This document shows, one piece after another, positions 6,016-23,236 of a stretch of DNA of 64,000 nt. Origin of the DNA: Curvibacter sp. GWA2_64_110 (GTDB taxonomy: Bacteria > Pseudomonadota > Gammaproteobacteria > Burkholderiales > Burkholderiaceae_C); assembly GCA_001797315.1 (NCBI GenBank), contig MGPC01000007.1:62001-126000 (forward strand), written 5' to 3'. The notes beneath the pieces were generated by a model that saw only the letters and a program-made list of their open reading frames with translations, was not told the DNA's origin and searched no databases. The position numbers and the translations under genes were made by a program. Numbering within the stretch: position 1 is the stretch's first letter; each line of letters starts with the position of its first letter.

Positions 6016-6046
6016 TTGACATTGACACGATGGGAAGGTTTACCTT
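6016..6046 (+). promoter_or_regulatory. MerR-family (CueR-like) promoter with 19-bp spacer
   Basis: TTGACA (6016-6021) and TACCTT (6041-6046) are separated by exactly 19 bp, the overlong spacer typical of promoters activated by MerR-family metal sensors. The spacer holds a partial dyad (ACATTGAC ... GGGAAGGT) like CueR boxes. It lies 40 bp before the HMA chaperone gene and would drive the chaperone and P-type ATPase genes. No MerR-type regulator gene is present in the window, so it must act from elsewhere. Confidence 0.65.
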
Positions 6047-6085
6047 ATTGCTTGCGTCAATAAGGACGCCTAACTGGAGAAACTT

Positions 6086-6403: not shown

Positions 6404-6455
6404 GTGATCTGTCGCGGCGGCGGAATTGTTTTACGACTGAAAGGAAGTTGAAGCC

Positions 6456-8804
6456 ATGGACGAACATGCTCATCACGGACACCATCCTCATGGTGAGGGG
6501 GGTAGGCTTGCCTCGACTTCAACGGCACAGACAGCAGGTTTGAAAGATCCGGTCTGCGGCATGGCCGTCACTGCAAAGTCGGAACACCACCTCAGCCACA
6601 AGGGGCAGAACTACTTCTTCTGCAGTGCGAAGTGCCAAGGCAAGTTCACCGCGGATCCAGAGCGCTACGCAGCGCCGGCCACCACCACCACGGTGGCAGC
6701 CCCGACGCCCACAGGCACGATCTATACCTGTCCCATGCACCCGGAAATTCGGCAGGATCACCCAGGTTCATGTCCGAAGTGCGGCATGACTCTTGAACCT
6801 TTGCTGCCCGAGCTGGAAGAGGAAGAAAACCCGGAGCTCAAGGATTTCCAGCGGCGCTTCTGGTGGACGCTTCCCCTGACGGTGGTCGTGACGGTGTTGG
6901 CCATGTTCGGTCACCAGCTCAATTGGTTCGACATGGCGCGCCAGAGCTGGATCGAACTGGCCCTGTCCCTGCCTATCGTGCTGTGGGCGGGTTGGCCGTT
7001 TTTTGAGCGCGGTTGGCAGTCCGTGCTCAACCGCAGCCCGAACATGTGGACGTTGATCGGCCTAGGCACCGGTGCTGCCTTTCTCTACAGCTTGGTCGCC
7101 ACCATTGCGCCTGAAGTGTTCCCAGCGTCCTTCGTCGCCATGGGGCGCGTAGCCGTCTATTACGAGGCCACCGCGGTCATCATCTCGCTCACGCTGTTGG
7201 GGCAGGTACTCGAATTGAAGGCCCGGTCCCAGACCTCGGCCGCCATCAAGTCGCTCCTGGGACTGGCGCCGAAGACTGCGCGACGTATCCGTGCCGATGG
7301 CTCTGAAGAGGATGTCCCCCTGACCCATGTGCACGTGGGCGACCGGCTGCGCATCCGTCCCGGAGAAAAGGTGCCGGTGGACGGCGTGGTGGTGGAGGGG
7401 AGCAGCGCGGTTGACGAATCAATGCTCACCGGAGAGCCGGTGCCAGTGACAAAGCGGGTCGGCGACAAGGTGATCGGCGCCACCATGAATACTAACGGCG
7501 CCCTGGTCATGACCTCCGAAAAAGTCGGCTCATCGACCATGTTGGCACAGATCGTCCAGATGGTGGCTCAGGCCCAGCGTTCCAAGGCACCGATGCAGCG
7601 CATGGCCGACGTCGTGGCCGGTTATTTCGTACTCATGGTCGTTGCCATTGCGCTGCTGACCTTCTTTGTCTGGGGGTTCTTCGGGCCTCAGCCCAGCTGG
7701 GTCTATGCGCTGATCAATTCGGTTGCCGTCCTGATCATCGCCTGTCCCTGTGCGCTCGGACTGGCGACGCCCATGTCCATCATGGTGGCGACCGGCAAGG
7801 GTGCCACCCGCGGCGTGCTATTCCGCGACGCAGCGGCCATCGAACACATGCGCCGGATCGACACGCTGATCATCGACAAGACCGGCACGCTGACGGAAGG
7901 CCGACCGGCCTTCGACCGCGCGGTTGCGGCGCCTGGTTTCGAGGAAAACGAGGTGTTGCGACTGGCGGCCAGCCTGGATCAGGGCAGCGAGCACCCATTG
8001 GCCGACGCCATCGTGCGTGCCGCCCGCGAGCGGGGCCTTTCTCTGGACAAGCCGGAGCAGTTCGAATCCGGATCCGGCATTGGCGTGCGCGGACTCGTTG
8101 GTGGACGACAGCTGGCGCTTGGGAATACAACCCTGATGCAGCAGATGGGCGTCTCGGTCGATTCACTGGTTCCCCAGGCCGAGGCACTTCGTGCGGAAGG
8201 CGCCAGCGTCATGCATTTGGCGGTTGACGGCCGCCTTGCTGGCCTGTTGGCTGTCTCTGATCCCATCAAGGCCAGCACGCCCGAGGCACTGGCGACCTTG
8301 AAGGCAGCCGGCATGCGCATCGTGATGGCCACCGGCGATGGCCTGACGACGGCCAAGGCGGTCGGTGCCCGCCTGGGGATAGACGAGGTGCATGGTGAAG
8401 TCAAACCGGCAGACAAGCTCATTCTCGTGGAGAAGCTGCAACGCGAGGGCCGGATCGTTGCCATGGCGGGCGACGGCATCAACGACGCGCCGGCGCTAGC
8501 AAAGGCGGATGTCGGTGTCGCCATGGGAACCGGTACCGACGTGGCGATGAACAGCGCGCAGATCACGCTGGTCAAGGGCGATCTGCGCGGGATTGCGGTG
8601 GCACGAACCCTGTCGGAAGACACCGTGCGCAACATGAAGCAGAACCTGATGTTTGCCTTTCTGTACAACGCGTTGGGTATTCCAGTGGCCGCCGGCGTCC
8701 TGTATCCGATAACCGGATGGTTGCTCTCGCCCTTGATTGCCGCGCTGGCCATGAGCTTCAGCTCGGCGTCCGTGATCGGCAATGCCTTGCGCCTTCGGCG
8801 ATGA
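6456..8804 (+). CDS. Heavy-metal (copper/silver) translocating P1B-type ATPase with YHS and metal-binding domains
   Basis: Inner-membrane ATP-driven exporter (782 aa). It begins with a His-rich segment ([15 protein letters not shown]). A YHS domain follows (about 28-72, DPVCGMAV ... YFFCSAKC), then a heavy-metal-binding motif (YTCPMHPEI ... PGSCPKCGM, about 86-112). The core shows TGEP in the actuator domain, the CPC metal site in [13 protein letters not shown], the phosphorylation loop DKTGTLTEG, and the [10 protein letters not shown] hinge. The classical N-terminal CxxC HMA domains are absent and replaced by YHS and His-rich elements, as in SilP/CopA-related pumps. The CPC motif makes Cu(I)/Ag(I) the likely substrate. 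AAAGGAAG lies upstream of the ATG. Its stop overlaps the next start (ATGA). Confidence 0.93.
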
Positions 8805-10024: not shown

Positions 10025-11086
10025 TCACGCCAGCAAGCGCAATACGTTGGCGCTGGTCGTGGCAGTGGCGCGGAAATACCCCAGCACCGTGGCCAGGCTG
10101 TGGTGTCCGGTGAGCGCCATGGTCTCGCCCAGCGGCACGTTCTGGCGTCCGGCCTCGGTCACAAAGCCTGAGCGCAGCGAATGCGCCGAAAACTCCCCCT
10201 CAATGCCGGCAAGGGCACAGCGCGCCTGCACGATGTCACGCACGGCCGCCGGCGACAGCGCCTCGCCCAGATGGCCGCCCTTGCGGATGCGCCGAAAAAT
10301 CGCCCCTGCCGTGATCCCGCTGGCTTGCAACCAGGCCTCCAGTGCCTGCGCGGCGCGACCGACCACCGGCTTGTGGTTCTCCGGCCGGTCCAGGCCGGCC
10401 TGGTTGGTCTTGGAGTAAGCCAGGGTGTAGACATATTCACCCGGGCCCAACCGGTGCAGATGGGCCAGGTCGGCACGCGCCACCTCCGAGCGTCGGCGGC
10501 CGCCGCTGGCCCAGGCAAAAAGGAGGAGGGCGCGATCGCGTCGACCGCGCAGGCTGTCGTCGCAGGTGGCCAGCAGTGCCTCCAGCGGATCGCGGGTGAG
10601 AGCGGCTTTCTTGCGCGGCAAGGCGCCGCGCCGGGCGTAGGCCTTGCGGGTGCGCGACAGGAGCTCGCGCACTTGCGGATCCTGGCACGGGTTCTTCAGT
10701 TCACGCGCCTGGTGCGCCTTGGACAGGACGGCAACCCGATGCACCAGGGTGTTGAGCGCCAGCACGCCGGCCTTGCCCTTGTAGCCAGCGGCCACCAGAG
10801 CCTGGTCGATCTCGGCCGGCAATTCCGACACCAAGCCTTGTTCGGCGCTGCGCTGGGCGTGGTCGACGATGAACTGCAGCACACAGGCCGCTGGCAATGG
10901 CAGCGCGATCTGGCGGCCGTAGCGCAGGCCGTACCAGGCGGCCCAGTAACGCAGGGCGCTGCGGTAGCTGGCCTGGGTGTTGGGTGATTCGCCTTCACGC
11001 AGCAGTTCCAGCACTGCACGCTGGGTCACGGCGGACAGCTCCGTGGGTTGCAGGGCGGGGGTGGAGCGCAGGGCGGGCAGACGCAT
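10025..11086 (-). CDS. tnpS: Tyrosine site-specific recombinase, TnpS-like
   Basis: Site-specific recombinase of 353 aa. A SAM-like core-binding domain spans about residues 15-155 and the catalytic domain about 165-345. The catalytic residues are visible: Arg in GGRRRSEVARAD (about 197-199), HSLR (His302, Arg305), GHHS (His328/329) and the nucleophile Tyr337 in LGYFR. It is divergent from a KfrA-like coiled-coil gene with a 125-bp AT-rich, dyad-containing spacer. In Tn4651/Tn4652-type Tn3 transposons this arrangement is tnpS-rst-tnpT and resolves cointegrates. The call therefore rests mainly on architecture. A plasmid- or integron-like integrase is the alternative. No tnpA is present in the window. 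Confidence 0.75.
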   Translation of the reverse strand: MRLPALRSTPALQPTELSAVTQRAVLELLREGESPNTQASYRSALRYWAAWYGLRYGRQIALPLPAACVLQFIVDHAQRSAEQGLVSELPAEIDQALVAAGYKGKAGVLALNTLVHRVAVLSKAHQARELKNPCQDPQVRELLSRTRKAYARRGALPRKKAALTRDPLEALLATCDDSLRGRRDRALLLFAWASGGRRRSEVARADLAHLHRLGPGEYVYTLAYSKTNQAGLDRPENHKPVVGRAAQALEAWLQASGITAGAIFRRIRKGGHLGEALSPAAVRDIVQARCALAGIEGEFSAHSLRSGFVTEAGRQNVPLGETMALTGHHSLATVLGYFRATATTSANVLRLLA

Positions 11087-11211
11087 GTCGGAGCGGCGGT
11101 GTGTTTTTTTGAAAATTACATATGTGATATGTATGATCTATCACAAAATAGATCGATAGATCACGATAACAATCATTTATCGATGGTAAATATAACCGCT
11201 GGAGTAGGGTG
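11087..11211. promoter_or_regulatory. Candidate rst recombination/regulatory site between tnpS- and tnpT-like genes
   Basis: AT-rich spacer between the divergent recombinase and coiled-coil genes, contrasting with the GC-rich flanks. It contains a dyad GTGATA (11124-11129) / TATCAC (11139-11144) and a second dyad ATCGATA (11152-11158) / TATCGAT (11178-11184). Paired arms of this kind fit a tyrosine-recombinase core plus accessory protein sites, and the region must also hold the two divergent promoters. The recombination function is inferred from similarity in layout to Tn4651. Confidence 0.5.
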
Positions 11212-12189
11212 ATGCAATTGAAAAGTACGAGGGGTGTCCAGCAGGACGATGTGTGGGCCGCCGCCGATGCGCTGATTGCGGAAGGCCTGCGTCCTACCAT
11301 TGAGCGGGTCCGGCAGAAAATCGGCCGGGGCTCGCCCAATACCGTCAGCCCAATGCTGGAAGCTTGGTTCGCAACTCTTGGGCCCCGTTTGGGCGTGGGC
11401 GGCACGAAGGAAGTGGAGGGGGATCTGCCGGCGCCAGGGCGACAGGCCGTGGTCAAGTTGTGGGAGACCGCGCTGCTGTCAACCCGGCAAGTAGCTGTGC
11501 AGGCCATGGAACAGGCACAGCAAACATTGGCCACAGATCGCGCTGCCCTCGAACTCCGGGAAGTCGACTTGGCGCGCCAAGAACAAGTTCTAACGGAACG
11601 GCAGGTTGCCGCTGATGAAGCACTGCAGGTCGCCCGCAGTCAAATTGCTGACTTGGCCACTCGCCTGGACGAATCTCATGTCCTACTGGGCCGGCGCGAC
11701 AGCGAAATCGACGATCTTCGTTCCAGGCTGGAGGTTTTTGAGAGGCAGCGTGATGCAGATCGGCGACAACGCGACGAGGAATCCAGAAGCAATGCCGATG
11801 AGCGGCACCGACTGGAGGAGCGAGCTGCGGCCAGCGAACGGCGGTTACTCGAGGAAGTAGACCGGGGAAGGCAGGAGGCCAAACAGGCCAAGGCGGATCT
11901 GGGTGAGACGGAACGTCGTGCGGAAGCGTCGCGTTTGAGGTTGGAGGCGGCCAACAAGGTCCTAGGCGATAAGCTGCAGGAGACGGAGTTCGAACTCCGG
12001 TCAGTACGTCAGGCGCTGACATCAGCTAATGATCATTCGTCTGAGCTTCGCAGCTTGTTGGACGAACAACGTGCAGCTACAGGCGTGGCCTTGGAGCAGC
12101 TCAATCGACTTTTAGCGAACGCGGTGGCTCACAAAAGATCCGCGGCAGCCGGCGCCAAGCGCAAGACTACGCCGGCCCGTAACGGCTGA
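11212..12189 (+). CDS. tnpT: KfrA-like coiled-coil DNA-binding protein, TnpT-like
   Basis: Protein of 325 aa. Residues about 1-60 resemble the KfrA N-terminal DNA-binding domain (DDVWAAADALIAEGLRPTIERVRQKIGRGSPNTV, a helix-turn-helix of plasmid-type regulators). Residues about 95-300 are an almost unbroken, Arg/Glu-rich coiled coil. In Tn4651-type transposons TnpT has this build and assists TnpS in cointegrate resolution. GGAG lies 7 nt before the chosen ATG. A GTG one codon upstream is possible. The downstream end at about 12190 should approach the transposon terminus, but I see no recognisable terminal inverted repeat, so the transposon is probably truncated there. Confidence 0.75.
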   Translation: MQLKSTRGVQQDDVWAAADALIAEGLRPTIERVRQKIGRGSPNTVSPMLEAWFATLGPRLGVGGTKEVEGDLPAPGRQAVVKLWETALLSTRQVAVQAMEQAQQTLATDRAALELREVDLARQEQVLTERQVAADEALQVARSQIADLATRLDESHVLLGRRDSEIDDLRSRLEVFERQRDADRRQRDEESRSNADERHRLEERAAASERRLLEEVDRGRQEAKQAKADLGETERRAEASRLRLEAANKVLGDKLQETEFELRSVRQALTSANDHSSELRSLLDEQRAATGVALEQLNRLLANAVAHKRSAAAGAKRKTTPARNG

Positions 12190-12217: not shown

Positions 12218-13333
12218 TCAGTCATAGTCTTCGACTGTGGTGCGCAAGGCAATAACTTCTGCCGCAATGTACCCCGATCGAGGAGGAAAGCCCCCCCAAT
12301 GGACTTTACTGGTGCCTTGTGTAGCTGCTACACGTGCTCCACGCCGGGTAAATGCATTCAAGACAATTGATCGAGGATGCTTTGCATCATCTGCCGGAGC
12401 AGATACAAAAGCAGTCCAAGTTTGTGTGCCATCTGGCTGGATCGGGCCTATCAACTCATTCAGGATTGATGGTCCAACATTGCGACGACTGCCGTGATGC
12501 GGGATTTGCACGAAGCTAAACTGCTGAAGCACAAAGCCTTGTTTTGTTGCATAGTTCTTTGCCCATTGAAGTGCGTTGATACCTGCATCTCCTGTTAGAA
12601 GCAGTCGTTGATTATTACCAATGTCAGCGTATAGAACGACACTACTTTCGTTACTGGCCGACGTGGATCCGCCATCTTTTAATCGTTCATTGGTCCAGCT
12701 TTCCGGGATCCATTTCTGTACTGTTTCAGTGAGTGCGGTTAAAAGATTGGAAAGACCGCTCGGGGCCGCCTTACCGATCCAAATGCCCGCTGCTTCGAGC
12801 GCATCTTGATCGGGTTCAGGGGTTTTCTCAAACTGGGGCAAAAGATGGAGATAGGTGGCTCTTTTGGGAGATAACACCGTAAATGGCCCGATCGCTGAAC
12901 CTTGAAACGGGTAATAGACCTTGCAGTCCGTCGCCCATGCCAAATCCAGGATCTCACTCAAAATATCGTACTCGTCCTTGACCGCCTTAGTAAGGCCGTC
13001 TTTGGTCCATTTTTTATTCTTGAAGAGATGAATCGCCTCCTCGGCTAAGAGCCAAGGAATATGCATCCACAGATTCTCAACGGGAATCTCCTTGAACAGC
13101 TCACGTAAACCTGAAGCATGATCTACATCTGAGTGGGTCAAGACAACATGCTCTATACGCACGTTCGAACCAAACTGCCTCTTGAGATGAGCTACCAAGG
13201 CTTCGCCCGTTGCGGCGGTCCCACCATCCACGACCATCAGCTTGTAGTTATCGACTTCGCCATAGCGCACGACGATGCAATCACCGGCACGACTGGCATC
13301 GCCAACAGCAAGAAACTCAACTTCGCAATTCAT
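12218..13333 (-). CDS. Metallo-beta-lactamase-fold hydrolase (ComEC/Rec2 C-terminal-like)
   Basis: Soluble protein of 371 aa with the metallo-beta-lactamase signature THSDVDH (66-72) and later metal ligands in LTGDAG and IPHHGSRRN. This pattern matches the ComEC-type MBL domains, which act on nucleic acids or nucleotides. Substrate here is unknown. The start is fixed by AAGGAGG 8 nt before the ATG at 13333. The frame remains open upstream only because of the adjoining IS21 end. The IS begins 58 bp upstream of the ATG, so the native promoter or an upstream operon partner has been lost. Related MBL genes occur beside E1/E2/JAB genes in predicted bacterial ubiquitin-like operons (family knowledge), which fits the JAB fragment on the other side of the IS. 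Confidence 0.75.
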   Translation of the reverse strand: MNCEVEFLAVGDASRAGDCIVVRYGEVDNYKLMVVDGGTAATGEALVAHLKRQFGSNVRIEHVVLTHSDVDHASGLRELFKEIPVENLWMHIPWLLAEEAIHLFKNKKWTKDGLTKAVKDEYDILSEILDLAWATDCKVYYPFQGSAIGPFTVLSPKRATYLHLLPQFEKTPEPDQDALEAAGIWIGKAAPSGLSNLLTALTETVQKWIPESWTNERLKDGGSTSASNESSVVLYADIGNNQRLLLTGDAGINALQWAKNYATKQGFVLQQFSFVQIPHHGSRRNVGPSILNELIGPIQPDGTQTWTAFVSAPADDAKHPRSIVLNAFTRRGARVAATQGTSKVHWGGFPPRSGYIAAEVIALRTTVEDYD

Positions 13334-13391
13334 GGCCCAGGCCTCCTTCAGTTGCGCTAAGCGCCAGTGCGTTTCCGTTTGGCTGGCAATG

Positions 13392-13419
13392 TGTTGCCGC
13401 CGACCGAAAACTGACCACC
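13392..13419 (+). repeat. IS21 left terminal inverted repeat
   Basis: The left end starts TGTTGCCGCCG and ends in the conserved inner block CTGACCACC. It pairs with 15970-15997 (reverse complement TGTCGGCGCCG ... CTGACCACC): the inner 9 bp are identical and the outer 19 bp are about two-thirds identical. Confidence 0.85.
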
Positions 13420-13505
13420 TAGCCGCATAAGTGCCGATCCAAAATTGACCAGGGTGTTCCACTGGCCTGCTGAAAGATTCAGCAGGAGAGACAGAGGTGA
13501 TCACC

Positions 13506-15029
13506 ATGGACTTGATAGGCAAGGTCAGGCGCATGAAGTTGCGCGACCAACTCTCCAACAGCGAAATCGCAAAGCGCACGGGACTCTCGCGCAACACGGT
13601 CAAGAAATGGCTGAAGGCGCCCGGCGATGTCATTCCCCGGTACCGACGGCAAAGCAGCGACGGCAAGCTCACCCCGTTTGAGGGCACCCTGGAGCAGGCG
13701 CTCAAGGCCGATGCCCGGCGGCCCAAACATGCCAGGCGCAGCGGTCGTGCCCTGTTTGCCCAGATCCAGGCTCAGGGTTACCGAGGCGGCTACAGCCGGG
13801 TGACCGACTTCATCCGGGCCTGGCGACAGGAGTTTGCCAAGAACCCTGCCAAGGCATTCGTTCCGATGAGCTTTGAGCTCGGGGAGGCGTTCCAGTTCGA
13901 CTGGAGCGAAGAAGGCTTGCTCATCGGTGGCGTGTACCACCACATGCAAGTGGCACACCTCAAACTGTGTGCCAGTCGGGCCTTCTGGCTGGTGGCCTAT
14001 CCCAGCCAGGGCCACGAGATGCTGTTCGATGCCCATACGCGCAGCTTCCATGCGCTGGGCGGTGTCACGCGCCGCGGCATCTACGACAACATGAAGACTG
14101 CCGTGGACAAGGTCAAGAAGGGCAAGGGGCGCATTGTCAACGCCCGCTTCAACGCCATGTGCAGCCACTATCTGTTTGATGCGGACTTCTGCAACGTAGC
14201 TTCTGGCTGGGAGAAAGGCGTGGTGGAGAAAAACGTGCAGGACAGCCGCCGGCGCATCTGGATCGAGGCTGGCACCAAGCGCTTCGGCACCTTCACCGAA
14301 CTCAATGCCTGGCTGGGCGAACGCTGCCGCGCCATCTGGGCCGATACCGAACACCCCGAGCAAAAGCAGTTCACGGTCGCCGAGATGCTGGAGTTGGAGC
14401 GAGACCACCTCATGAGCATGCCCGAGCCCTTCGATGGCTATGTGGAGAAACCGGCTCGCGTGAGCAGCACCTGCCTGGTGGCGGTGGCGCGCAACCGCTA
14501 CTCGGTGCCTTGCGAGTGGGCCGGGCACATGGTGAGCACCCGTCTGTATCCGAATCGCGTGGACGTGGTGGCGCAAGACGCGGTGGTTGCCAGTCACACC
14601 CGGCTGTACACCCGTGGACAGACCAACTACGACTGGCAGCACTACATCGAGCTGGTGCAACGCAAGCCAGGGGCACTGCGCAATGGCACACCGTTCCTGG
14701 ATCTGCCCACGCCACTGCTGCGCTTGCGCCAGTCGCTGTTGCGTCATGTGGGTGGAGACAGAGTCATGGCCCAGGTCTTGGCCGTGGTGCCGCAGGCTGG
14801 TCTGGAGTCGGTGCTGGTGGCCGTGGAGTTGGTGCTCGAAGGGGCGTCCCCGAGTGGGGCCATCAGCGTGGAGCATGTGCGCAATGTGCTGGCCCGGCTC
14901 AATAGCCCGCAAGCACCCGAGCAGGCCGAGACAGCACTGCAACTTACACATGTACCGGTGGCCAACACCGCACGCTATGACCGGCTGCGCCCGACCAACT
15001 TGGACGGCATGGGGGTGAGCCATGCGTGA
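13506..15029 (+). CDS. istA: IS21-family transposase IstA
   Basis: Transposase of 507 aa. The N-terminal helix-turn-helix ([20 protein letters not shown]) binds the terminal repeats. The DDE catalytic core is visible as Asp in FQFDWSEEG, Asp in GIYDNMK and Glu in GVVEKNVQ. The C-terminal part is the Mu-transposase-like beta-barrel. I chose the ATG at 13506 because GAGGTG lies 7 nt upstream; an ATC-ATG extension of three codons is less likely. It overlaps istB by 8 nt, the coupled arrangement usual in IS21. Confidence 0.95.
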
Positions 15030-15855
15030 TGCACAGAGAGATGTACTGACAGAACTCAAGTCCTTGCGGCTGCACGGCATGGCCAGCGCCTGGGCTGATC
15101 TGGTTGAGCAAGGCGGTGGCGGCAAAGAGTTGGAATCCTCGCGCTGGCTGGTGGAGCACCTGCTGCAAGCCGAAGATGTGGATCGGCACCTGCGCTCCAT
15201 TGCCCACCAGACCAAGGCGGCCCGCTTCCCCATCCACCGGGACCTGGCGGGGTTCGACTTCGAGGTGTCGCCGGTGGACAAGGCGCTGATCCAGCGATTG
15301 GCCGACCTGTCGTTTACCGACGATGCGCAGAACGTGGTGTTGATTGGTGGGCCGGGGACTGGCAAGACGCACCTAGCCACGGCACTGGGCATCTCCGGTC
15401 TGACGCATCACCGAAAGCGGGTGCGGTTCTACTCCACGGTTGATCTGGTCAATGCCCTGGAGCAGGAGAAAGTCAAGGGCAAAGCGGGAGGGATCTGCTT
15501 GGGATTGATGCGCATGGATCTGGTGATCCTGGACGAGCTGGGCTACTTGCCCTTCAGTCAGGCTGGTGGGGCCTTGCTGTTCCATCTGCTGTCCAAGCTG
15601 TACGAGCACACCAGCGTCTTGATCACGACCAACCTGACGTTTGCAGAGTGGTCCAGTGTGTTCGGGGACGCCAAGATGACCACGGCATTGCTGGATCGTC
15701 TGACCCATCACTGCCACATCGTGGAGACGGGCAATGAGTCCTACCGGTTCCGGCACAGCACCCATGAAGCCAAGGGACGGATCAAGACCAGGGAGCAGAG
15801 CAGAAAAAGCGTGCCCCGGCAGAACAACCTGGGCAGCGATTCAGAGCAGTCATGA
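15022..15855 (+). CDS. istB: IS21-family helper ATPase IstB
   Basis: AAA+ ATPase of 277 aa that, in this family, assembles on target DNA and activates IstA. Walker [12 protein letters not shown] and Walker [11 protein letters not shown] are intact, followed by sensor and arginine-finger regions ([26 protein letters not shown]). Length is normal. About 140 bp of element end follow, holding the right terminal repeat. Confidence 0.95.
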
Positions 15856-15969
15856 AGACTGACACAACTACCAACAAGGAGACCGAAATACCAGCTTGAG
15901 GCTTATAGTTATACACAGTCAGCGTTCAAACCGCTGGCATTAGCCCCTGGTCAAAATTGGATCGGCACA

Positions 15970-15997
15970 GGTGGTCAGTATTGAATCGGCGCCGACA
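15970..15997 (-). repeat. IS21 right terminal inverted repeat
   Basis: Right end of the element, ending GGCGCCGACA at 15997. Its reverse complement starts TGTCGGCGCCG and carries CTGACCACCT like the left end. A GTG-initiated chimeric frame runs from inside this repeat into the adjacent JAB fragment. Confidence 0.85.
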
Positions 15998-17070: not shown

Positions 17071-17244
17071 TTGTCTTCCTCGCAAGTAACTCTTCATATC
17101 ATCCGCCATCTTGTGAGTAGCTTGGAGAATTTTGCTTTGAAGAGTTGCCTTTTACCTGGTCAAAAAATGAGAGAAGACCGTACAGAAGGTTGTGACACAA
17201 ACGTATAGAAGTTTATTAAGGCTGCTTTTCTTGCAGGGGGCCTG

Positions 17245-17293
17245 ATCGGACATTTTCCCTTCACAGAATGGGACATTTTCCCTTCGCCGGATG
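17245..17293 (+). repeat. Two tandem copies of a CATTTTCCCTTC repeat
   Basis: Copy A (17245-17262) reads ATCGGACATTTTCCCTTC and is followed by ACAGAATG. Copy B (17270-17293) reads GGGACATTTTCCCTTC then GCCGGATG. Further copies lie at 17674-17696 and 23124-23149 in the same orientation. Clustered copies at element edges look like remains of transposase-binding sites from an insertion sequence that is no longer complete. The element cannot be named from this. Confidence 0.7.
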
Positions 17294-17388
17294 CTGAGAG
17301 CAACGACACTGGTCGTTCAGTCATCCGGTCAATATTTCCCAAGGCCTATATCGCCCATGTCCGTGTGTTGCGTTGTACGGCAATTGCA

Positions 17389-17580
17389 ATGGCGGATATG
17401 ACTTGGTTTGATGACTACTACAACATCGCCAAGCCTGAATTCATCAAGAACTACTGGATGGGCAAGGCTCACCCAACAACGCCTCGACCCGAGGTCCTGG
17501 TAAACGGAGTGATCGAATTCACCGATCCCGAACAACTCATGCATATCAGGAAACACGGGGCAAGACTCGGGCAAGGCTAA
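17389..17580 (+). CDS. Short hypothetical ORF between repeat copies
   Basis: Frame of 63 aa from ATG 17389 (MADMTWFDDYYNIAKPEFIKN). An upstream GTG/TTG start at 17365 is also possible. The composition looks protein-like (aromatic, Asp/Lys-rich, HPTTPRPEVLVNGVIEF), but I recognise no family and see no ribosome-binding site. It lies between copies B and C of the CATTTTCCCTTC repeat and could be a gene fragment trapped by transposition. On the opposite strand an 81-aa frame overlaps it and looks less natural. Confidence 0.3.
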   Translation: MADMTWFDDYYNIAKPEFIKNYWMGKAHPTTPRPEVLVNGVIEFTDPEQLMHIRKHGARLGQG

Positions 17581-17673
17581 GTTACGCAGGATCCAGCCAG
17601 TCGATCACTGGCTTGGCCGGACAATTCCTTCGTTGGAGGGCCGTTTCCCTATAGTTGTCTAAACGAGAAGGGG

Positions 17674-17696
17674 GGGCATTTTCCCTTCGCCGGATG
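17674..17696 (+). repeat. Third copy of the CATTTTCCCTTC repeat
   Basis: GGGCATTTTCCCTTC followed by GCCGGATG, preceded by a G-run. It sits 74 bp downstream of the last gene of the ubiquitin-like operon. The remaining bases between 17581 and 17769 show no gene. Confidence 0.65.
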
Positions 17697-17769
17697 CTTG
17701 CGGTCCTGAGAGGTATTTCAAAATCCTACAGGGGGAAGACCGCCATGAAACATCGGCATCCCGAAAGCT

Positions 17770-18300
17770 CTAGCCTGGCCTGCGGAAAGCGCCACGCATC
17801 TGACCAACACCTTCGACCAAGGCTCCGGCTTTGACCAAAAGCCGACATGCGTCTAGGACGTCCCATGGTATCTCACTCAGAGCGTCGGCCGCGTCGGGAA
17901 ACCGAACGAACCCGGTCAGCGGCCAACGCGAGATCAACTCCTGAGCCAAGGCGGTCAGTTCTCGGGCTTCATATGGCGAAGCAATGTCTTCTTCAACCTT
18001 GCCAAAGAGATAGATCTGATTGCGGCGAAGAATAAAGTGGCTTTCGCAGCCGGTGTCTCTCCATACCGATGGAAACAAAGAAGTTCCTGTCTTCGCATCC
18101 TGGTAAAGGCGCCAAGCCTTTCCAGCTCGGGCATCTAGATTGACTGGAATGTCTTCACCGCATCCGCAAGGGCAACGAATCAGCAACCAGCGCGGCACTC
18201 CGCGCGCGATCAGCATTCCTTCGCCGGGTTTGGTCAGCATGCTGGCGACCGCCGCGCGATTCTCGACGACGCCCTTCTGAATGAACGGAATAACTTTCAT
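17770..18300 (-). CDS. DUF6527-like zinc-binding protein of the Ubl operon
   Basis: Last gene of the operon, 176 aa. The N-terminal half contains IRCPCGCGED (Cys43, Cys45, Cys47) and, later, GCESHF (Cys85, His88), together a plausible zinc site. This Cys pattern matches DUF6527 proteins, which are commonly encoded next to multiubiquitin/E2/ThiF genes (family knowledge). The helical C-terminal half (about 105-176) shows nothing further. Biochemical role is unknown; in such operons it could be a substrate, an E3-like factor or an effector. It starts 12 nt after the preceding stop. Confidence 0.75.
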   Translation of the reverse strand: MKVIPFIQKGVVENRAAVASMLTKPGEGMLIARGVPRWLLIRCPCGCGEDIPVNLDARAGKAWRLYQDAKTGTSLFPSVWRDTGCESHFILRRNQIYLFGKVEEDIASPYEARELTALAQELISRWPLTGFVRFPDAADALSEIPWDVLDACRLLVKAGALVEGVGQMRGAFRRPG

Positions 18301-18312
18301 CCTCGATACAGG

Positions 18313-19938
18313 TTACGCCTCTTTCGAGAGCGATTCAAAAATTCTTTCCGCCAGGACCATGGCCATAGCCCGAAGGTCTTCACGAGTGAGTCGCCCTTCG
18401 ATAGTGACCTTGTCTTTGAGAACTTCAGGGTTGCAGGCTTTCTTGGCAAGAATACATGCAAGAGTCCATGCATACTGATGGGGACGTTGCTCCATCGGCT
18501 GCGCGTGCAGCCGGATTTGCCGAACGCAATCAAAGTACCAACTCGATCCATCTCTGGGATGGCAGGATAGCAGCTCTCCGTTGAGCGCCTTCGACGAGTA
18601 AAGTCCACCGACCGACTCCAATACCCTTTCGGCGCTTCGCCGATCACCGACGAAGCCGTCAACAAAAAGTCCAGCTTCGAGAGATGCCGCATCAAACACC
18701 ACTGGCTTGTCCGTCTCAATTTTCTCAAAGTCAATAATGATGGCATCGGTGCCGCGGACGAGCACGTTGGTCGCATGCATGTCGCCGTGAACCACCCCCA
18801 TCAGCACAGGGCGTGAATCGAGAGCATTAAATTTCTCGTGAAGCTCTTCAAGATTCAGCACGGCCCCGAACCGTAACATTCTGTCGCGGCGGTGTTTAGG
18901 GACTTCAGCAGGGAAGATCAGGCCGAGTGTATCTGGGAGGTTCCGCTGTTCGACTCTGGCGCCACTGCGCCACGAGGCGATGGTCGTACTGAATAGATTA
19001 CCGACGGCTGCTGCTGCGCGGCCGTCGCGGGCACAATCTCTCAACGCCTCGGCACCAATGACGTAGTCACTGACGAGTATGCCCATCTTGTGGCCCAAGG
19101 CGCACCGATCGAGCTTGAGTCGTGGGCCGAGATGAAAAGGAATATGACCCAATGCCGATTCCCGATAATTGCTGTACTCTTTCACGATGTCTTTTCGCTC
19201 TCCGAGCTTCACAAAGTACATGTAGGGCCATTGCGTCGGAATCACATTGCCCCGTAATTCGGCTAGTACGCGATACGTTCCAGCACCCGACATGCCGTTG
19301 CTGAGAGGAATGAGATCGACCTTTTTGCAGTCGTGAAATGCCCTCTGCACCAATAGTTCGCCTTCGGCGGTGAGTGGAATATCTTCGTCGCTTTCGAGAA
19401 GCATTTCTACTTTGGTATCGACATTGGGAGCGAATCCTGCAGGGTTGTTCTTGATCGTGTTGGCCATGCCGCGCCAATCGCATGGATTTTCTACGACGTA
19501 AACAAAGGGGCTATATGTGAAATTGTCAAATGACGTTCTCGCGCCGACGAACTCACTGCGCTCTGCTTCGTTCAGCGAATATTCGTGGACGGGGAGGTTC
19601 AGTTCCTTAATCGCATTGACAACATAACGGCGCCTGTAGTTTCCATCCACACTAGGTAGTTGAGGCAGATGCTGCACATAGACCCGACAGTCATGAGCCA
19701 ACAAGGTGCTCGCAAATCTTTCGAGCACACTATAAATTTGTGTTGGCTTGTCTTCCGCTTGAAAGAAAAGAACCGAGTCGATCTGCTGTAGGACGCCAGG
19801 CTCCAGCAGTCGCGATTCGTCAAGTGGCTCGACCGTAAAGCCTCGAGATTCAAACTCTCCGCTGATGCCTTGGGGAAGCGGCCCCACATACGAAATCTTC
19901 GCTCGGATCGGCGGCGGAACGAAAGTGGAGATTGTCAC
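18313..19938 (-). CDS. APH/protein-kinase-fold protein of unknown role in the Ubl operon
   Basis: Protein of 541 aa. The C-terminal two-thirds resembles aminoglycoside-phosphotransferase-like kinases: a glycine loop NGMSGAGTYRVL (about 214-225), a candidate ATP-binding Lys in YFVKLGE (Lys244), the catalytic loop VVHGDMHATNVLV (His384, Asp386, Asn391) and the metal-binding IDFE (about 402-405). The first 200 residues (VGPLPQGISGEFESRG, VLFFQAEDKPTQIYSVLERF) look like an alpha/beta, receiver-like domain that I cannot name. No membrane segments are seen. It starts 3 nt after the E1 stop, so it is an integral operon member. It could phosphorylate a protein, nucleotide or small molecule as effector or regulator of the conjugation system. 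Confidence 0.7.
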   Translation of the reverse strand: MTISTFVPPPIRAKISYVGPLPQGISGEFESRGFTVEPLDESRLLEPGVLQQIDSVLFFQAEDKPTQIYSVLERFASTLLAHDCRVYVQHLPQLPSVDGNYRRRYVVNAIKELNLPVHEYSLNEAERSEFVGARTSFDNFTYSPFVYVVENPCDWRGMANTIKNNPAGFAPNVDTKVEMLLESDEDIPLTAEGELLVQRAFHDCKKVDLIPLSNGMSGAGTYRVLAELRGNVIPTQWPYMYFVKLGERKDIVKEYSNYRESALGHIPFHLGPRLKLDRCALGHKMGILVSDYVIGAEALRDCARDGRAAAAVGNLFSTTIASWRSGARVEQRNLPDTLGLIFPAEVPKHRRDRMLRFGAVLNLEELHEKFNALDSRPVLMGVVHGDMHATNVLVRGTDAIIIDFEKIETDKPVVFDAASLEAGLFVDGFVGDRRSAERVLESVGGLYSSKALNGELLSCHPRDGSSWYFDCVRQIRLHAQPMEQRPHQYAWTLACILAKKACNPEVLKDKVTIEGRLTREDLRAMAMVLAERIFESLSKEA

Positions 19939-19941
19939 GGC

Positions 19942-21276
19942 TCAATCCTGTCTCGCAAACAGGGGCTGCCGATCGCCGCGGGCGAGGGCTCCCTTGAGGG
20001 AACAGATGAAGCAATCTGGGCTAGATTTGACCGCTACCGACCGCAACTTGGGGCCCTTCGCGTCATAGACCAAGTGCCTTGCCTCCCCAGGGACCTCGGT
20101 GACAATGTTAAGAAGCATCGTCACAGCCATGGAGACCATGGTGCTGTTCAGGGAGATAACGGATGGGGCGGGCTCGCGAGCGCCTGGAATGTAGGGATCC
20201 AGCTTCCGCTCCTGCTCGCTCATCATGTCGCGACGGATCTCCTCAGGGTTCAGGAGACCGCTGCACCATAGACACCCATGGCCTGGACTCAATAGCTGGA
20301 CCCGTCCATAGATCCCGGTGACTGCCCCCTCTGAAGAGGTAATGGTAGATCCCATGTCGATACAGGGAATCAGGTATTGATACGCGACTTGTTGAAATAC
20401 CGAGCGGCTGCCGTGCGAATCTGTGCAGCCAAAAATGATGTCCACAGTGGTTAGCTGTTTCGCAATTGCAGAGCGACAGACATCGCCGACAATCGTTTGC
20501 ACGCGAACTTGGCTTGAAAAGTCCTGCATGTAACGGCGTGCGATCTCGACCTTGGGAGTACCGATATCCGATTCACGGGCTGCGACGACACGATTAAGGT
20601 TCGTCTGCTCCAGCGTATCAGGGTCGAGCAGCAAAAAGTCACGGACTCCGAGGTGCACCAGTTGTTGTGCCAAGACGGATCCAGTACCGCCAAGGCCGAC
20701 AATGGCAACACGGAGTTTTTGAATCGCTTGCTGACCTGCAAGTCCGAACGCGCGGATCTGCCTGTCATATTGCTCGATCTGAGTATCGCATGAGGTGGAC
20801 GGATCGAACTCTACGACGCGGCGATTACCAACAGAGACGACACGCATCTCCCGGGACGATCCCAACTCTCGAGCGTGTAGTCCCCCTGGACTGAGAACCA
20901 GCGCCCCATGCGCACCGGTAAGCCCCCGCCTTGACAAGAAGTCAGCCAAGACACGCTCGCCCTCGTCATCCGTGGCAGAAAACTCTGGGGGGTAAGGGGC
21001 GAGATGGCTATGAACAAATACCAGCTGTAGCTTCTCGTTACGAGCCTTCTTGGTCACTCGGGCGACATACGCCGGCGAAAGTTGAGCAAATGTTTTTGTT
21101 TGAGAGAGATAGTCCTCGAGCTCGGGCAGGTGAATTTCTCGCACAACAAGACTGGAGGAATCACCACGCCCGAGGGCTGGTGCCGCAAGCAATATAGCGC
21201 AGCGCTCGACGTCATATCCGACGAGGTTAGTCCGCAGGACCTCCAGGTCATTAACTGTGATGCGAATTTCGCTCAT
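19942..21276 (-). CDS. JAB-ThiF fusion: deconjugase plus E1-like activating enzyme
   Basis: Protein of 444 aa with two enzymatic parts. Residues about 1-150 are a JAB/MPN metalloprotease with an intact JAMM motif: HSH (His89, His91), then SATD (Ser100, Asp103), and an upstream Glu in VVREIHL. Residues about 165-420 are a ThiF/MoeB/E1 adenylyltransferase: GLGGTGS nucleotide loop (194-200), LLLDPDTLEQTNLNR (Asp218-Arg229), Lys242 in TPKVE, GCTDSHGSR (Asp286), and zinc Cys pairs CLWC (335/338) and CFIC near the C-terminus. It should adenylate the Ubl C-terminus and may also trim or remove it. ATG 21276 overlaps the E2 stop by 4 nt; a longer frame lacks support. Confidence 0.88.
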   Translation of the reverse strand: MSEIRITVNDLEVLRTNLVGYDVERCAILLAAPALGRGDSSSLVVREIHLPELEDYLSQTKTFAQLSPAYVARVTKKARNEKLQLVFVHSHLAPYPPEFSATDDEGERVLADFLSRRGLTGAHGALVLSPGGLHARELGSSREMRVVSVGNRRVVEFDPSTSCDTQIEQYDRQIRAFGLAGQQAIQKLRVAIVGLGGTGSVLAQQLVHLGVRDFLLLDPDTLEQTNLNRVVAARESDIGTPKVEIARRYMQDFSSQVRVQTIVGDVCRSAIAKQLTTVDIIFGCTDSHGSRSVFQQVAYQYLIPCIDMGSTITSSEGAVTGIYGRVQLLSPGHGCLWCSGLLNPEEIRRDMMSEQERKLDPYIPGAREPAPSVISLNSTMVSMAVTMLLNIVTEVPGEARHLVYDAKGPKLRSVAVKSSPDCFICSLKGALARGDRQPLFARQD

Positions 21277-21677
21277 CGGGCAGGCATTAGGCGACGCATG
21301 ATCACGTTGAAGTACGTGATCAAAGCGTCCTTGTTCGGATTCCAGCTTTGAAGGTGCCACGAAAACCAGGTCGTGGAGCGGCCGGGCTTCACATCGCTAG
21401 GAATCGGATTTGAGTCATTTGAAGCCTGCGGAGTACTACCATTTGCGAGACGTAGGCCCGCTGGTTCGACCCAAAAGCAATCAGGCTGTGCAGCAGGGTA
21501 ACCAGGCGGCGCAAAGAAGATGACTTTCGCGTTATCGCGATTCCATCCCTGCTCCTTGAGGTCGACGTTTTCGACCTCAACGAGGATCCCCCCATTTCCT
21601 AGAGGCGTGAAGGTCGGATTTGCGTACCCTGCGTCTTTGCAGAATTTGATGAATTCGTCCTGATGCGCTTGCATCAT
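21273..21677 (-). CDS. E2-like ubiquitin-conjugating protein (prokaryotic E2 family E-like)
   Basis: Protein of 134 aa with an E2/UBC-like layout: strand-rich NGGILVEVENVDL, AKVIFFAPPGYPAAQPDCFWVEP (the P-x-P turn of UBC folds), and the C-terminal WFSWHLQSWNPNKDALITYF helix typical of prokaryotic E2 family E. The canonical HPN motif is absent. Only two cysteines exist, Cys13 and Cys67, and Cys67 in PDCFW is the only one in a plausible fold position, so the catalytic residue is not settled. Its start (ATGATG) overlaps the Ubl stop and its stop overlaps the E1 start, giving tight stoichiometric coupling. Confidence 0.8.
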   Translation of the reverse strand: MMQAHQDEFIKFCKDAGYANPTFTPLGNGGILVEVENVDLKEQGWNRDNAKVIFFAPPGYPAAQPDCFWVEPAGLRLANGSTPQASNDSNPIPSDVKPGRSTTWFSWHLQSWNPNKDALITYFNVIMRRLMPAR

Positions 21678-21919
21678 TTGCTCCCGAAGGTTGCTGGCGG
21701 CACGGCGTAGAAGTGGTGGGGAGGGGTGCCAATAGTGATGGACTCCCCGTCGGAGATCATTCGATCGGGATCATTGCCGTGGGCTTCAAGAAACAGCTGG
21801 TAGTTCGCCGGAACTTGAGCGATGACCTTGATTTCGCCTCCGTTCAAGCTCGTTTTTTCCGTTTCGTACTTCTTGTTGTCGACGAAGAAGTGGTTGGGGT
21901 GTGGCTTGGCATTGCTCAT
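21674..21919 (-). CDS. Ubiquitin-like modifier (multiubiquitin-domain protein, single domain)
   Basis: Protein of 81 aa with one beta-grasp-type multiubiquitin domain: HFFVDNKKYET, GGEIKVIAQVP, YQLFLEAHG, the acidic SDGESITIG and the typical end HHFYAVPPATFG. The family ends in ATFG. Here Gly79 is followed by Ser-Lys, so the modifier is probably made as a precursor that needs cleavage after Gly79. The JAB domain of the E1 fusion is the obvious candidate. Most relatives contain several tandem domains; this one has a single domain. Both ends overlap neighbouring genes by 4 nt (WYL regulator upstream, E2 downstream). Confidence 0.87.
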   Translation of the reverse strand: MSNAKPHPNHFFVDNKKYETEKTSLNGGEIKVIAQVPANYQLFLEAHGNDPDRMISDGESITIGTPPHHFYAVPPATFGSK

Positions 21920-22851
21920 GACGTAGCACCTTTCTCGTTGGGGGGGACTATTGATTTCGACACAGGGATCTTCCGGGCGGCGTCGAGGACTTCGCTGAGG
22001 CCTTCACGATTAACCAGCGCCAGTGGCTGGGCCGCTGGAGGTTCATTTGTCTCGCGGTCAAGCTGCAGCTGACGCAACAGATAGAAGACAAGGGCCTTGC
22101 GGCAAGTCAGATTCAATCGGCCAGACGACATCCCGAAGTCCACCTCGATGGCGGCCCGTTGCTCAGGTGTGAGGCCGTCCCTGGGCTTGACGATGACATC
22201 AACGGTGGAGTGCCACCATTGGTCGGTGGCTGGGTCAACCGTCGCGGGTCTAGTCGCCACAACGCGTTGAATGCGGGAGAAGACGAAGTCTCTGAAGTCT
22301 TGGTTCTCTGAACACCAAGCCCGAACGTGCCACCTAAACCCGTCAAATGCGATTGCGTGTGGGGCAATCCAGCGAACGGTCGCGGTCGGACGACGCATTG
22401 ATTGGTATTGAAGCTCAACCTCTTCGCGGTCGCGGATGGCCCAGAGTATGCGGATCAGTGTCTCGGTGGGAATCGGGCGCGTTGGATAACGAACCAAGTC
22501 ATAGGGCGGCATCCAGCCGAGGAACGAAGCTGACGCAGCGATGGTTCCGGACGCTAAGCCGGACAACTGGTTCAGATACGCATGTGCATCTGCTCGTGTC
22601 ATAGCCGGCTTGAAACCAGCGCGTACGCGGTATGTCTTTTGGTTCTTGTCGTATTCGAGGTTGTCCGGCGCCAAGTCGATATACCTAGCCAAGTCTGCCG
22701 ACGCCTGCTGGGTCGAGATTCCGAAGAAATCAACCAACTCACCACGATTAACCGTGCCTTCCCACAACAACCGGAAGTCGATGAACTCAAGGCGGCGTTC
22801 AGCACCCCAACGAGTGGAGGGTTGTTTTGCTGTCGTCGCTTCGGATTTCAC
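21916..22851 (-). CDS. WYL-domain transcriptional regulator (BrxR/CapW-like)
   Basis: DNA-binding regulator of 311 aa. It has an N-terminal winged helix (RRLEFIDFRLLWEGTVNRGELVDFFGISTQQASADLARYIDL), a WYL domain with EVELQYQSMRRP, IAPHAIAFDGFRWHVRAWC and FRDFVFSRI, and a C-terminal extension. This is the size and order known for BrxR and CapW, ligand-responsive repressors of BREX, CBASS and other phage-defence operons. The start is a GTG. It is the first gene of the operon, overlapping the Ubl gene by 4 nt, so it probably represses its own promoter and the whole system. The activating ligand is unknown. Confidence 0.87.
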   Translation of the reverse strand: MKSEATTAKQPSTRWGAERRLEFIDFRLLWEGTVNRGELVDFFGISTQQASADLARYIDLAPDNLEYDKNQKTYRVRAGFKPAMTRADAHAYLNQLSGLASGTIAASASFLGWMPPYDLVRYPTRPIPTETLIRILWAIRDREEVELQYQSMRRPTATVRWIAPHAIAFDGFRWHVRAWCSENQDFRDFVFSRIQRVVATRPATVDPATDQWWHSTVDVIVKPRDGLTPEQRAAIEVDFGMSSGRLNLTCRKALVFYLLRQLQLDRETNEPPAAQPLALVNREGLSEVLDAARKIPVSKSIVPPNEKGATS

Positions 22852-22878
22852 AATGAGTCCAATAAGTAGATCAATCTA

Positions 22879-22899
22879 GTTTATGGACATATGGTAAAC
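22879..22899. promoter_or_regulatory. Candidate operator of the WYL regulator
   Basis: Inverted repeat GTTTA (22879-22883) / TAAAC (22895-22899) around an 11-bp centre that includes CATATG. It lies 28-48 bp upstream of the GTG of the WYL regulator, in the only promoter-sized gap of the operon. It is a plausible autoregulatory site. The identification rests on position and symmetry only. Confidence 0.45.
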
Positions 22900-22985
22900 C
22901 ATTTCGGACGCTGGTGCAAGCGAGTCGGCTTTGGCGCAGATCGGCCTGTACGCCAGGTTAATCGCAACCGGTGCTTTTAGAACCC

Positions 22986-23033
22986 AAAAACCCCTTCATA
23001 AGACAGCCAAGGCAGCCTTATGAAGGGGTTTTT
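22986..23033. terminator. Bidirectional rho-independent terminator
   Basis: A perfect 17-bp stem (AAAAACCCCTTCATAAG pairing with CTTATGAAGGGGTTTTT) encloses a 14-nt loop. Each strand ends in a T5 run. It lies immediately after the 3' end of the tRNA-like gene and between it and the WYL promoter, so it terminates the minus-strand tRNA transcript. Confidence 0.88.
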
Positions 23034-23034
23034 G

Positions 23035-23121
23035 CGGAGAGTGCGGGATTCGAACCCGCGAAGGGCCTAAACCCTCGGCAGCTTATCAAGCTGCTGTCAT
23101 AAGCCACTCGACCAACCCTGG
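23035..23121 (-). tRNA. Class II (serine-like) tRNA with GAU anticodon and mismatched acceptor 5' end
   Basis: An 87-nt cloverleaf is visible on the minus strand. D-stem GTC/GAC encloses a GAGTGG loop typical of tRNA-Ser. The anticodon arm is GCAGC-TTGATAA-GCTGC, giving anticodon GAU. A long variable arm (GAGGG ... CCCTT) follows, then T-arm GCGGG-TTCGAAT-CCCGC, acceptor ACTCTCC and discriminator G. The acceptor 5' strand CCAGGGT pairs at positions 3-7 but not at 1-2 (C-C twice). The CATTTTCCCTTC repeat begins 2 bp beyond that end, so the first bases were probably replaced by an insertion. The long variable arm and G73 are SerRS identity elements, whereas GAU reads Ile codons. It may be a pseudogene or an unusual mobile-element tRNA. 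Confidence 0.65.
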
Positions 23122-23123
23122 AA

Positions 23124-23149
23124 ATCGGACATTTTCCCTTCGCCGGATG
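23124..23149 (+). repeat. Fourth copy of the CATTTTCCCTTC repeat, abutting the tRNA 5' end
   Basis: ATCGGACATTTTCCCTTC followed by GCCGGATG. The left part is identical to copy A (17245-17262) and the right part to copy B (17270-17293). It lies 2 bp beyond the 5' end of the tRNA-like gene, on the far side of the ubiquitin-like operon from the other copies and in the same orientation. Confidence 0.75.
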
Positions 23150-23236
23150 ATTAGTGACCACCTGTCAGGAACTCTATTTGTACTGAATTTTGAACAGGAT
23201 TGCCAGCATTGCAGCTGTCAGTTGACCATCAACCGT

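What the first reader, a model, noticed from the sequence alone, without database searches (positions are those of the whole stretch)
17770..22851. Compact ubiquitin-like conjugation operon with a WYL defence-type regulator and an unassigned kinase-like gene
Six adjacent minus-strand genes encode regulator, Ubl modifier, E2-like, JAB-ThiF (protease-E1), an APH-kinase-like protein and a DUF6527-like zinc protein. The first four overlap by ATGA, the others are 3-12 nt apart. Ubl/E2/E1/JAB operons in bacteria are known (Bil-type, CBASS Cap2/Cap3, multiubiquitin clusters). A WYL first gene of BrxR/CapW size points to phage defence. The kinase-like member and the JAB-E1 fusion in one operon are not, to my knowledge, part of a characterised system. 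Its position on mobile DNA supports a conflict role (inference).
Basis: partly seen in the sequence, partly recalled or inferred. Interest (0 to 1): 0.92.

Follow-up and report, generated by a model that had tools for sequence, protein, structure and literature searches.

The report
Bacterial ubiquitin-like operon with a kinase
This is a six-gene bacterial operon of the known "Bub" ubiquitin-like kind, under a CapW-type repressor, from a branch that carries an extra, apparently active kinase whose role is unknown.

Summary
Most of it is a known kind. Ubl, E2, JAB-E1 and DUF6527 form the class 6e operon of Iyer 2006, now called Bub. The JAB-E1 matches solved Citrobacter BubCD (3.8e-34), so that fusion is characterised. 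The WYL protein is a CapW (4.6e-71).

The fifth gene is the new part: an APH-fold/TCAD9 phosphotransferase. In an 86-row E1 tree one clade of 49 rows has it in 45; of 37 rows outside, one has a different TCAD9 protein nearby. Catalytic residues are invariant in 39 of 39 aligned sequences. Its divergence tracks that of E1 (r = 0.90). DUF6527 has a long winged-helix tail in 46 of 48 clade copies. The kinase is missing from four clade rows (about three losses) that keep the conjugation core, so I read it as an accessory effector or regulator. Substrate and phage phenotype are untested. Ye 2026 and Gong 2025 were not held, so the novelty of the kinase clade is provisional.

The parts
22867..22878 (-). 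palindrome TAGAT-TG-ATCTA upstream of the first gene; candidate CapW operator
   Evidence: 12/12 match, first base 27 nt before the GTG start; 12/12 or 11/12 in 6 of 14 WYL upstream regions checked (window, L024, L026, L029, L030, L032), not in the other 8; pattern chosen after seeing the sequences
21916..22851 (-). WYL repressor of CapW/BrxR type
   Evidence: S. maltophilia CapW 7tb6 E=4.6e-71, BrxR 7t8k 7.3e-52; WYL 8.1e-14
21674..21919 (-). single-domain ubiquitin-like modifier (BubA-type), ends PPATFG-SK, so two residues would have to be trimmed to expose Gly
   Evidence: PF14452 1.7e-5; tails
21273..21677 (-). E2-like protein (BubB-type) with Ser in F-S-W-H where a few outlying E2s have Cys
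   Evidence: PF14462 5.3e-12; weak match (0.015) to Citrobacter BubB; alignment
19942..21276 (-). JAB peptidase fused to E1-like ThiF domain (BubCD-type)
   Evidence: Citrobacter BubCD 9ea4 E=3.8e-34; JAMM residues; ThiF 7.4e-41
18313..19938 (-). kinase: variable N-terminal alpha/beta domain plus APH-fold/TCAD9 phosphotransferase with intact catalytic residues
   Evidence: K244, E254, H384, D386, N391, D403 invariant in 39 of 39 aligned; AlphaFold2 pLDDT 89.7; Foldseek: maltokinase, methylthioribose kinase, APH
17770..18300 (-). DUF6527 zinc protein in a long form with C-terminal winged helix
   Evidence: PF20137 1.8e-17; C43, C47, C85, H88 invariant in 43 of 43 aligned; pLDDT 93.8; no match at E <= 0.001; several winged-helix proteins among weak hits, 1qbj Zalpha TMt 0.83 over 65 columns, E 0.12; 88 residues after the zinc motif
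17670..17701 (.). repeat flanking the operon on the low side; resembles an insertion-sequence end; similar copies at 17244 and 17267
   Evidence: family D1 (78% to reference)
23123..23154 (.). matching repeat flanking the operon on the high side
   Evidence: family D1 (91% to reference) and inverted pair I4 with 15967-15991 at the end of the IS21-like element

Best explanation
It is a Bub (bacterial ubiquitination-like) operon of a distinct clade that carries its own kinase. Shown by sequence: the operon content, catalytic residues, CapW identity, the kinase clade, and the long form of DUF6527. Inferred: CapW holds the whole operon off from the palindrome in front of it and lets go when DNA damage makes single-stranded DNA. 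The JAB part trims the Ubl tail (-SK) to expose Gly. The E1 part adenylates the Ubl and hands it to the E2, which attaches it to target proteins; the JAB part can also remove it. The kinase is an accessory effector or regulator that works with this cascade, either phosphorylating a target or being switched by Ubl attachment. It is not a core conjugation enzyme, because Bub operons outside the clade lack it and it seems to have been lost about three times while the core was kept. DUF6527 with its winged helix probably acts as a zinc adaptor that ties the complex to nucleic acid or to a target.
For: BubCD match 3.8e-34; BubB weak match 0.015; gene order of Iyer 2006 class 6e; CapW match 4.6e-71 and palindrome. 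Kinase in 40 of 45 genome-contig loci with E1 at about 40-60% identity (L024-L068) against 1 of 35 with E1 below about 38% (L069-L103). E1 tree: clade of 49 rows (support 99/86), 45 with kinase. Kinase and E1 distances r = 0.90 over 38 loci, 0 of 1000 shuffles as high. Catalytic residues invariant in 39 of 39 aligned kinases. Long tail (80 residues or more after the zinc motif) on 46 of 48 DUF6527 copies of the clade, the four kinase-less rows included, against 11-26 residues in the 23 copies measured outside it. A second Ubl lies directly before the kinase in 6 loci.
Against: No biochemical or phage data. The E2 match to BubB is weak. The substrate of the kinase is unknown; the solved structures that it resembles include small-molecule kinases, which would need no link to the Ubl. 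Losses are inferred from four rows (L052/L056, L054, L057). The long DUF6527 tail is not a mark of the whole clade: the two early-branching rows L104 (= L014) and L009 have 11 and 46 residues. The palindrome pattern was picked by eye and is absent from 8 of 14 WYL upstream regions; a promoter scan found no sigma-70-like site.
Confidence: 0.72

Rival explanations
1. The kinase is a free-standing small-molecule or antibiotic phosphotransferase that hitch-hikes beside a Bub operon, with no functional link.
For: Best folds are maltokinase, methylthioribose kinase and aminoglycoside phosphotransferases; mobile surroundings.
Against: Fixed place between JAB-E1 and DUF6527, or after a second Ubl; 45 of 49 rows of one E1 clade; distances co-vary with E1, r = 0.90. 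Of 5 of 398 genomes with a match to the kinase profile, the 3 strong matches lie beside Bub genes; the 2 weak ones lie inside open frames of 1471 and 1495 aa without Bub genes in the short stretches held.
Confidence: 0.1
2. The kinase phosphorylates a component of the cascade itself (Ubl, E2 or JAB-E1) and gates conjugation, a bacterial counterpart of ubiquitin phosphorylation.
For: Intact catalytic residues; co-inheritance; second Ubl next to the kinase in 6 loci.
Against: No Ubl residue separates the kinase clade from other Bub Ubls at the thresholds used; conjugation cores persist without the kinase.
Confidence: 0.25
3. The kinase is the toxic effector (abortive infection), and Ubl attachment or removal by JAB switches it on or off, as Cap2/Cap3 do for CD-NTases in type II CBASS (recalled).
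For: Accessory position and repeated loss, CapW control as in other immune operons; CBASS genes about 4 kb away on two Bradyrhizobium plasmids.
Against: No toxicity data; no CD-NTase in the operon; kinase loss leaves otherwise intact operons.
Confidence: 0.3

Closest known systems
Bub operons (Gong 2025; Ye 2026, neither read) = Iyer 2006 class 6e 'polyUbl' operons
   Same: Ubl, E2-fold protein without the conserved Cys, JAB-E1 fusion, zinc protein; CapW among the neighbours
   Different: extra APH/TCAD9 kinase; DUF6527 with a long tail; clade-specific E2 residues PDCFW and WFSWH where others have mostly PDMFW/PDMFY and RWSRH or RFSRH
Synechocystis 6803 pSYSX multiubiquitin cassette (PMC4963859, passages read)
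   Different: no kinase; HTH + ImmA/IrrE genes instead of CapW
CapW/BrxR WYL repressors
   Same: nearly full-length match to CapW of known structure
   Different: DNA and inducer binding of this one untested
TCAD9 / APH-type kinases of VMAP ternary systems (eLife 2020, PMC7159879, passages read)
   Same: Pfam TCAD9 (E up to 1) in 34 of 34 scanned kinases; [quoted passage not shown]
   Different: the partners here are Bub genes; vWA, MoxR or VMAP partners were not searched for

Membership tests
Bub / Iyer class 6e operon | Ubl of the Multi_ubiq family | tested here: met
   PF14452 1.7e-5, 25.4 bits against cut-off 24.5
Bub / Iyer class 6e operon | E2-fold protein lacking the conserved Cys | tested here: met
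   Prok-E2_E 5.3e-12; Ser in F-S-W-H where BubB aligns W-S-R-H; no Cys in that column
Bub / Iyer class 6e operon | JAB fused to E1 (BubCD) | tested here: met
   3.8e-34 to BubCD over residues 17-386; JAMM residues kept
Bub / Iyer class 6e operon | metal-binding protein with a C-x3-C and later Cys/His signature | tested here: met
   PF20137 1.8e-17; C43, C47, C85, H88 invariant in 43 of 43 aligned
Bub / Iyer class 6e operon | covalent Ubl conjugation | not testable with these tools
   needs biochemistry
CapW | sequence of CapW/BrxR type | tested here: met
CapW | palindromic operator at its own promoter (recalled) | tested here: inconclusive
   perfect palindrome in the window, but pattern chosen after inspection and present in 6 of 14 regions
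active APH-fold kinase | Lys, Glu, H-G-D-x4-N and Asp catalytic residues (motif recalled) | tested here: met
   K244, E254, H384, D386, N391, D403 invariant in 39 rows, G385 in at least 90%; fold; activity itself untested
Bil | Bil-type E2 with catalytic Cys and separate E1 and JAB proteins (recalled) | tested here: not met
   JAB and E1 fused, E2 without the Cys
type II CBASS | CD-NTase in the operon and E1-E2 fusion Cap2 (recalled) | tested here: not met
   no CD-NTase among the six genes; E2 separate
anti-phage system | protection against phage | not testable with these tools
   no assay; literature says not demonstrated for Bub

The most novel reading that the evidence does not exclude
A bacterial ubiquitin-like pathway with a dedicated kinase: phosphorylation and ubiquitin-like conjugation wired together in one stress-induced operon, with the kinase acting on the cascade, or being switched by Ubl attachment, to arrest or protect the cell.
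Probability: 0.45. Interest if true: 0.85.

Novelty: new variant of a known kind. Interest (0 to 1): 0.6.

Why it matters
Kinase and ubiquitin signals are interlocked in eukaryotes; a compact bacterial operon in which a kinase travels with a complete Ubl, E2, E1 and peptidase set would make the logic of such coupling testable with five small genes. It also gives Bub, whose biological output is unproven, a candidate effector or regulator, and offers a natural contrast: related operons with and without the kinase.

Tried and rejected
Uncharacterised JAB-E1 fusion: rejected, it is BubCD. CBASS and Bil membership: rejected on gene content. Phage-borne origin: no kinase match at 1e-5 in 50,697 phage records, and none of 86 pattern matches in viral contigs was confirmed as an E1 relative. 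Ubl residues specific to the kinase clade: none at the thresholds used. Ubl against PDB by sequence: best hits are TAL-effector repeats with no stretch significant on its own, taken as chance; a multi-ubiquitin protein and BilA scored 0.28 and 0.43. Homology of the kinase's N-terminal domain to response-regulator receivers: suggested by the predicted alternating strands and helices and by a true receiver domain in the related L087 protein, but Pfam listed no receiver among the families of 34 kinases and no direct test was made. Long DUF6527 tail as a mark of the whole clade: I held this at first; one search shows that two early-branching rows lack it. Defence-island enrichment: 98 of 117 selected flanking proteins from 33 loci were scanned without a control set, so no enrichment is claimed. 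Promoter scan: no sigma-70-like site found at 17300-23200.

Rows dropped before counts: 14 of 100 loci with an E1 hit were left out of the E1 tree as duplicates, fragments or short stretches (L001, L002, L003, L008, L011, L012, L013, L015, L016, L020, L027, L036, L066, L100). The kinase alignment holds 39 sequences, 38 of them from the 54 kinase frames in 51 loci and one from L104; the rest were fragments, broken frames, duplicates, near-duplicates or the L087 protein. Several loci outside the clade sit on short contigs, so a missing kinase there is not always assessable.
Full report
OBSERVATION. The six genes are there as described. Each is an open frame from start to stop with the expected family match. 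The three ATGA overlaps and the gaps of 3 and 12 nt suggest one transcription unit.

WHAT THE CORE IS. The JAB-E1 protein matches Citrobacter BubCD of known structure (9ea4, 3.8e-34, residues 17-386), and the E2 matches Citrobacter BubB weakly (0.015). The set of Ubl, E2-fold protein without Cys, JAB-E1 and metal-binding protein is the fifth operon type (row 6e) of Iyer et al. 2006 (PMC1779556; passages and section 14 read). The EMBO J 2026 paper (PMC13373217; passages read) says that Bub was defined in Gong 2025 and Ye 2026, that 219 of 544 Bub operons are associated with CapW or CapH+CapP, and that protection against phage has not been demonstrated. Those two source papers were not held, so I have not read them.

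REGULATOR. The WYL protein is a CapW (7tb6, 4.6e-71; BrxR 7.3e-52). A palindrome TAGAT-TG-ATCTA lies at 22878-22867, its first base 27 nt before the start codon. A perfect match occurs upstream of WYL in L024, L026, L029 and L030 as well, and 11 of 12 in L032; it is not found in the other 8 of 14 regions, and the pattern was chosen after inspection. WYL precedes Ubl on the same strand in 10 of the 45 loci L024-L068 and in the window, and is divergent in four (L049, L057, L062, L063). That WYL repressors sense single-stranded DNA is the title of a paper seen only in a reference list.

THE KINASE IS A CONSERVED MEMBER OF ONE BUB CLADE. In plasmids the kinase has matches in 13 records. I opened 7 of the 13. 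Six show Ubl, (E2) ThiF, phosphotransferase, DUF6527 in this order; E2 is not annotated in two of them but is found there by profile, and in one (L008) E1 and kinase are each split over two frames. The seventh is a fragment with phosphotransferase and DUF6527. The other six records, near-copies of the first, show adjacent ThiF, phosphotransferase and E2 names. Of 208 plasmid records with an E1 match, the 60 listed fall into 13 at 41-50% identity (12 kinase-bearing records and a Roseomonas fragment broken by insertion sequences) and 47 at 27-33%; the three that I opened from the latter lack the kinase.

The genome scan with an E1 alignment kept 80 of 135 relatives. These counts include near-duplicates such as L026/L027 and truncated contigs; L066, one of the five without kinase, also has an incomplete E1. 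The 45 loci come from records titled as Alpha-, Beta- and Gammaproteobacteria, Gemmatimonadetes, Geothrix, Limisphaerales, FCPU426 and Cyclobacteriaceae among others (some of these groups named from genus by recall); a Deinococcus plasmid adds one more group.

In the E1 tree (86 rows, 14 dropped beforehand) one clade of 49 rows (99/86) holds 44 rows with kinase; L014, at first too short to tell, has kinase and DUF6527 once extended (L104), making 45 of 49. L052 and L056 (sister rows), L054 and L057 lack it, which reads as about three losses. Outside, 1 of 37 rows (L087) has a related protein, separated from E1 by two genes: a receiver-TCAD9-winged-helix protein without the HGD motif in its translation. 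Kinase and E1 distances correlate at r = 0.90 over 38 loci, with 0 of 1000 shuffles as high. A profile search of 398 genomes gave matches in 5: 3 strong ones, all beside Bub genes, and 2 weak ones inside open frames of 1471 and 1495 aa without Bub genes in the short stretches held. A single-sequence search of 369 genomes gave 2 matches, both beside Bub genes.

TWO LAYOUTS. Of the 40 kinase-bearing loci in L024-L068, 31 have E1, kinase, DUF6527; six (L047, L050, L053, L059, L060, L065) have E1, DUF6527, a second Ubl, kinase; three end before DUF6527. L031 and L058 carry two DUF6527 genes.

WHAT THE KINASE LOOKS LIKE. At E up to 1, Pfam gives TCAD9 in 34 of 34 and APH in 33 of 34 kinases. K244, E254, H384, D386, N391 and D403 are invariant in 39 of 39 aligned sequences. 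The AlphaFold2 model (34 rows, pLDDT 89.7, pTM 0.88) matches maltokinase, methylthioribose kinase and aminoglycoside phosphotransferases (best E 2e-8; TM-scores by target length 0.33-0.59 in the 50 rows shown). The N-terminal part varies much (11-37% identity to the window in 24 stretches of 134 codons compared) and is predicted as alternating strands and helices.

OTHER CLADE MARKS. DUF6527 has a C-terminal tail of 80-113 residues after the zinc motif in 46 of 48 copies of the clade; the two early-branching rows L104 and L009 have 11 and 46 residues, so the kinase appears to be older than the tail. In 23 copies measured outside the clade the tail is 11-26 residues; in 3 more the motif was not found. 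The model of the window's copy (pLDDT 93.8) has no match at E 0.001 or better, but winged-helix proteins recur among the weak hits (Zalpha 1qbj, TMt 0.83 over 65 columns, E 0.12). E2 has PDCFW and WFSWH where other Bub E2s have mostly PDMFW/PDMFY and RWSRH or RFSRH. A Ser in [FW]-S-x-H is kept in most Bub E2s aligned, and three outlying E2s (L079, L087, L096) have Cys in that column. I infer that this Ser is the acceptor residue; that is not tested here.

MECHANISM. Shown: gene content, residues and co-inheritance. Inferred: CapW release by DNA damage (stated for CapW), tail trimming of the Ubl, adenylation, transfer, removal by JAB. The kinase is most likely accessory to conjugation, because the Bub operons seen outside the clade lack it and it seems to have been lost without loss of the core. 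Whether it acts on the cascade, is controlled by it, or phosphorylates something else is open.

SETTING. The window has a phage integrase at 10025-11086, KfrA at 11209-12189, a metal efflux set at 17-8804, a metallo-beta-lactamase-fold protein at 12218-13726 that matches PADLOC candidate PDC-M48B (6.4e-98), an IS21-like element at about 13392-15997 (istA/istB-like frames, named from recall; ends) and repeats on both sides of the operon. On two opened Bradyrhizobium plasmids CBASS genes lie about 4 kb away. This fits mobile or conflict DNA but proves no defence role.

VERDICT. Known kind (Bub), new variant (kinase clade). In the held papers I found no mention of a phosphotransferase in these operons (searches; passages), but none of those searches used the word phosphotransferase and the two primary Bub papers could not be read.

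Noticed in passing
L067:3879-7262, L064:2956-6375, L048:3264-6731, L052:3285-6722 and others: A UvrD helicase with PDDEXK nuclease (GajB/RTasHel-like in PADLOC) sits directly upstream of the Ubl in one subclade, including three of the four kinase-less rows (L052, L054, L056); partial copies also precede two other Bub loci (L011, L012).
   Followed up: partly
23034-23121: ARAGORN calls a tRNA-Ile (GAT) of 88 nt; its last 27 nt match a stretch at a tRNA-Ser (GGA) elsewhere in the genome at 96%, so it may be a rearranged tRNA at an integration site.
   Followed up: partly
17244-17298, 17670-17701, 23123-23154: Repeats like an insertion-sequence end flank the operon on both sides.
   Followed up: partly
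12218-13726: Metallo-beta-lactamase-fold protein matching PADLOC candidate PDC-M48B; its open frame runs into the IS21-like element.
   Followed up: no
L087:4149-6200: Receiver-TCAD9-winged-helix protein near an outlying Bub locus whose E2 has Cys at the Ser position; its TCAD9 part lacks the HGD motif.
   Followed up: partly
L047, L050, L053, L059, L060, L065: A second Ubl gene lies directly before the kinase in the alternative layout.
   Followed up: partly
L031:10859-12115, L058:10913-12057: Two DUF6527 genes in tandem after the kinase.
   Followed up: no
L104:3048-3503, L009:8857-9450: Early-branching kinase-bearing loci whose DUF6527 lacks the full tail, suggesting that the kinase came before the tail.
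   Followed up: partly
L079, L087, L096: E2 proteins with Cys in the column where most Bub E2s have Ser, a possible Cys-Ser swap of the acceptor residue.
   Followed up: no
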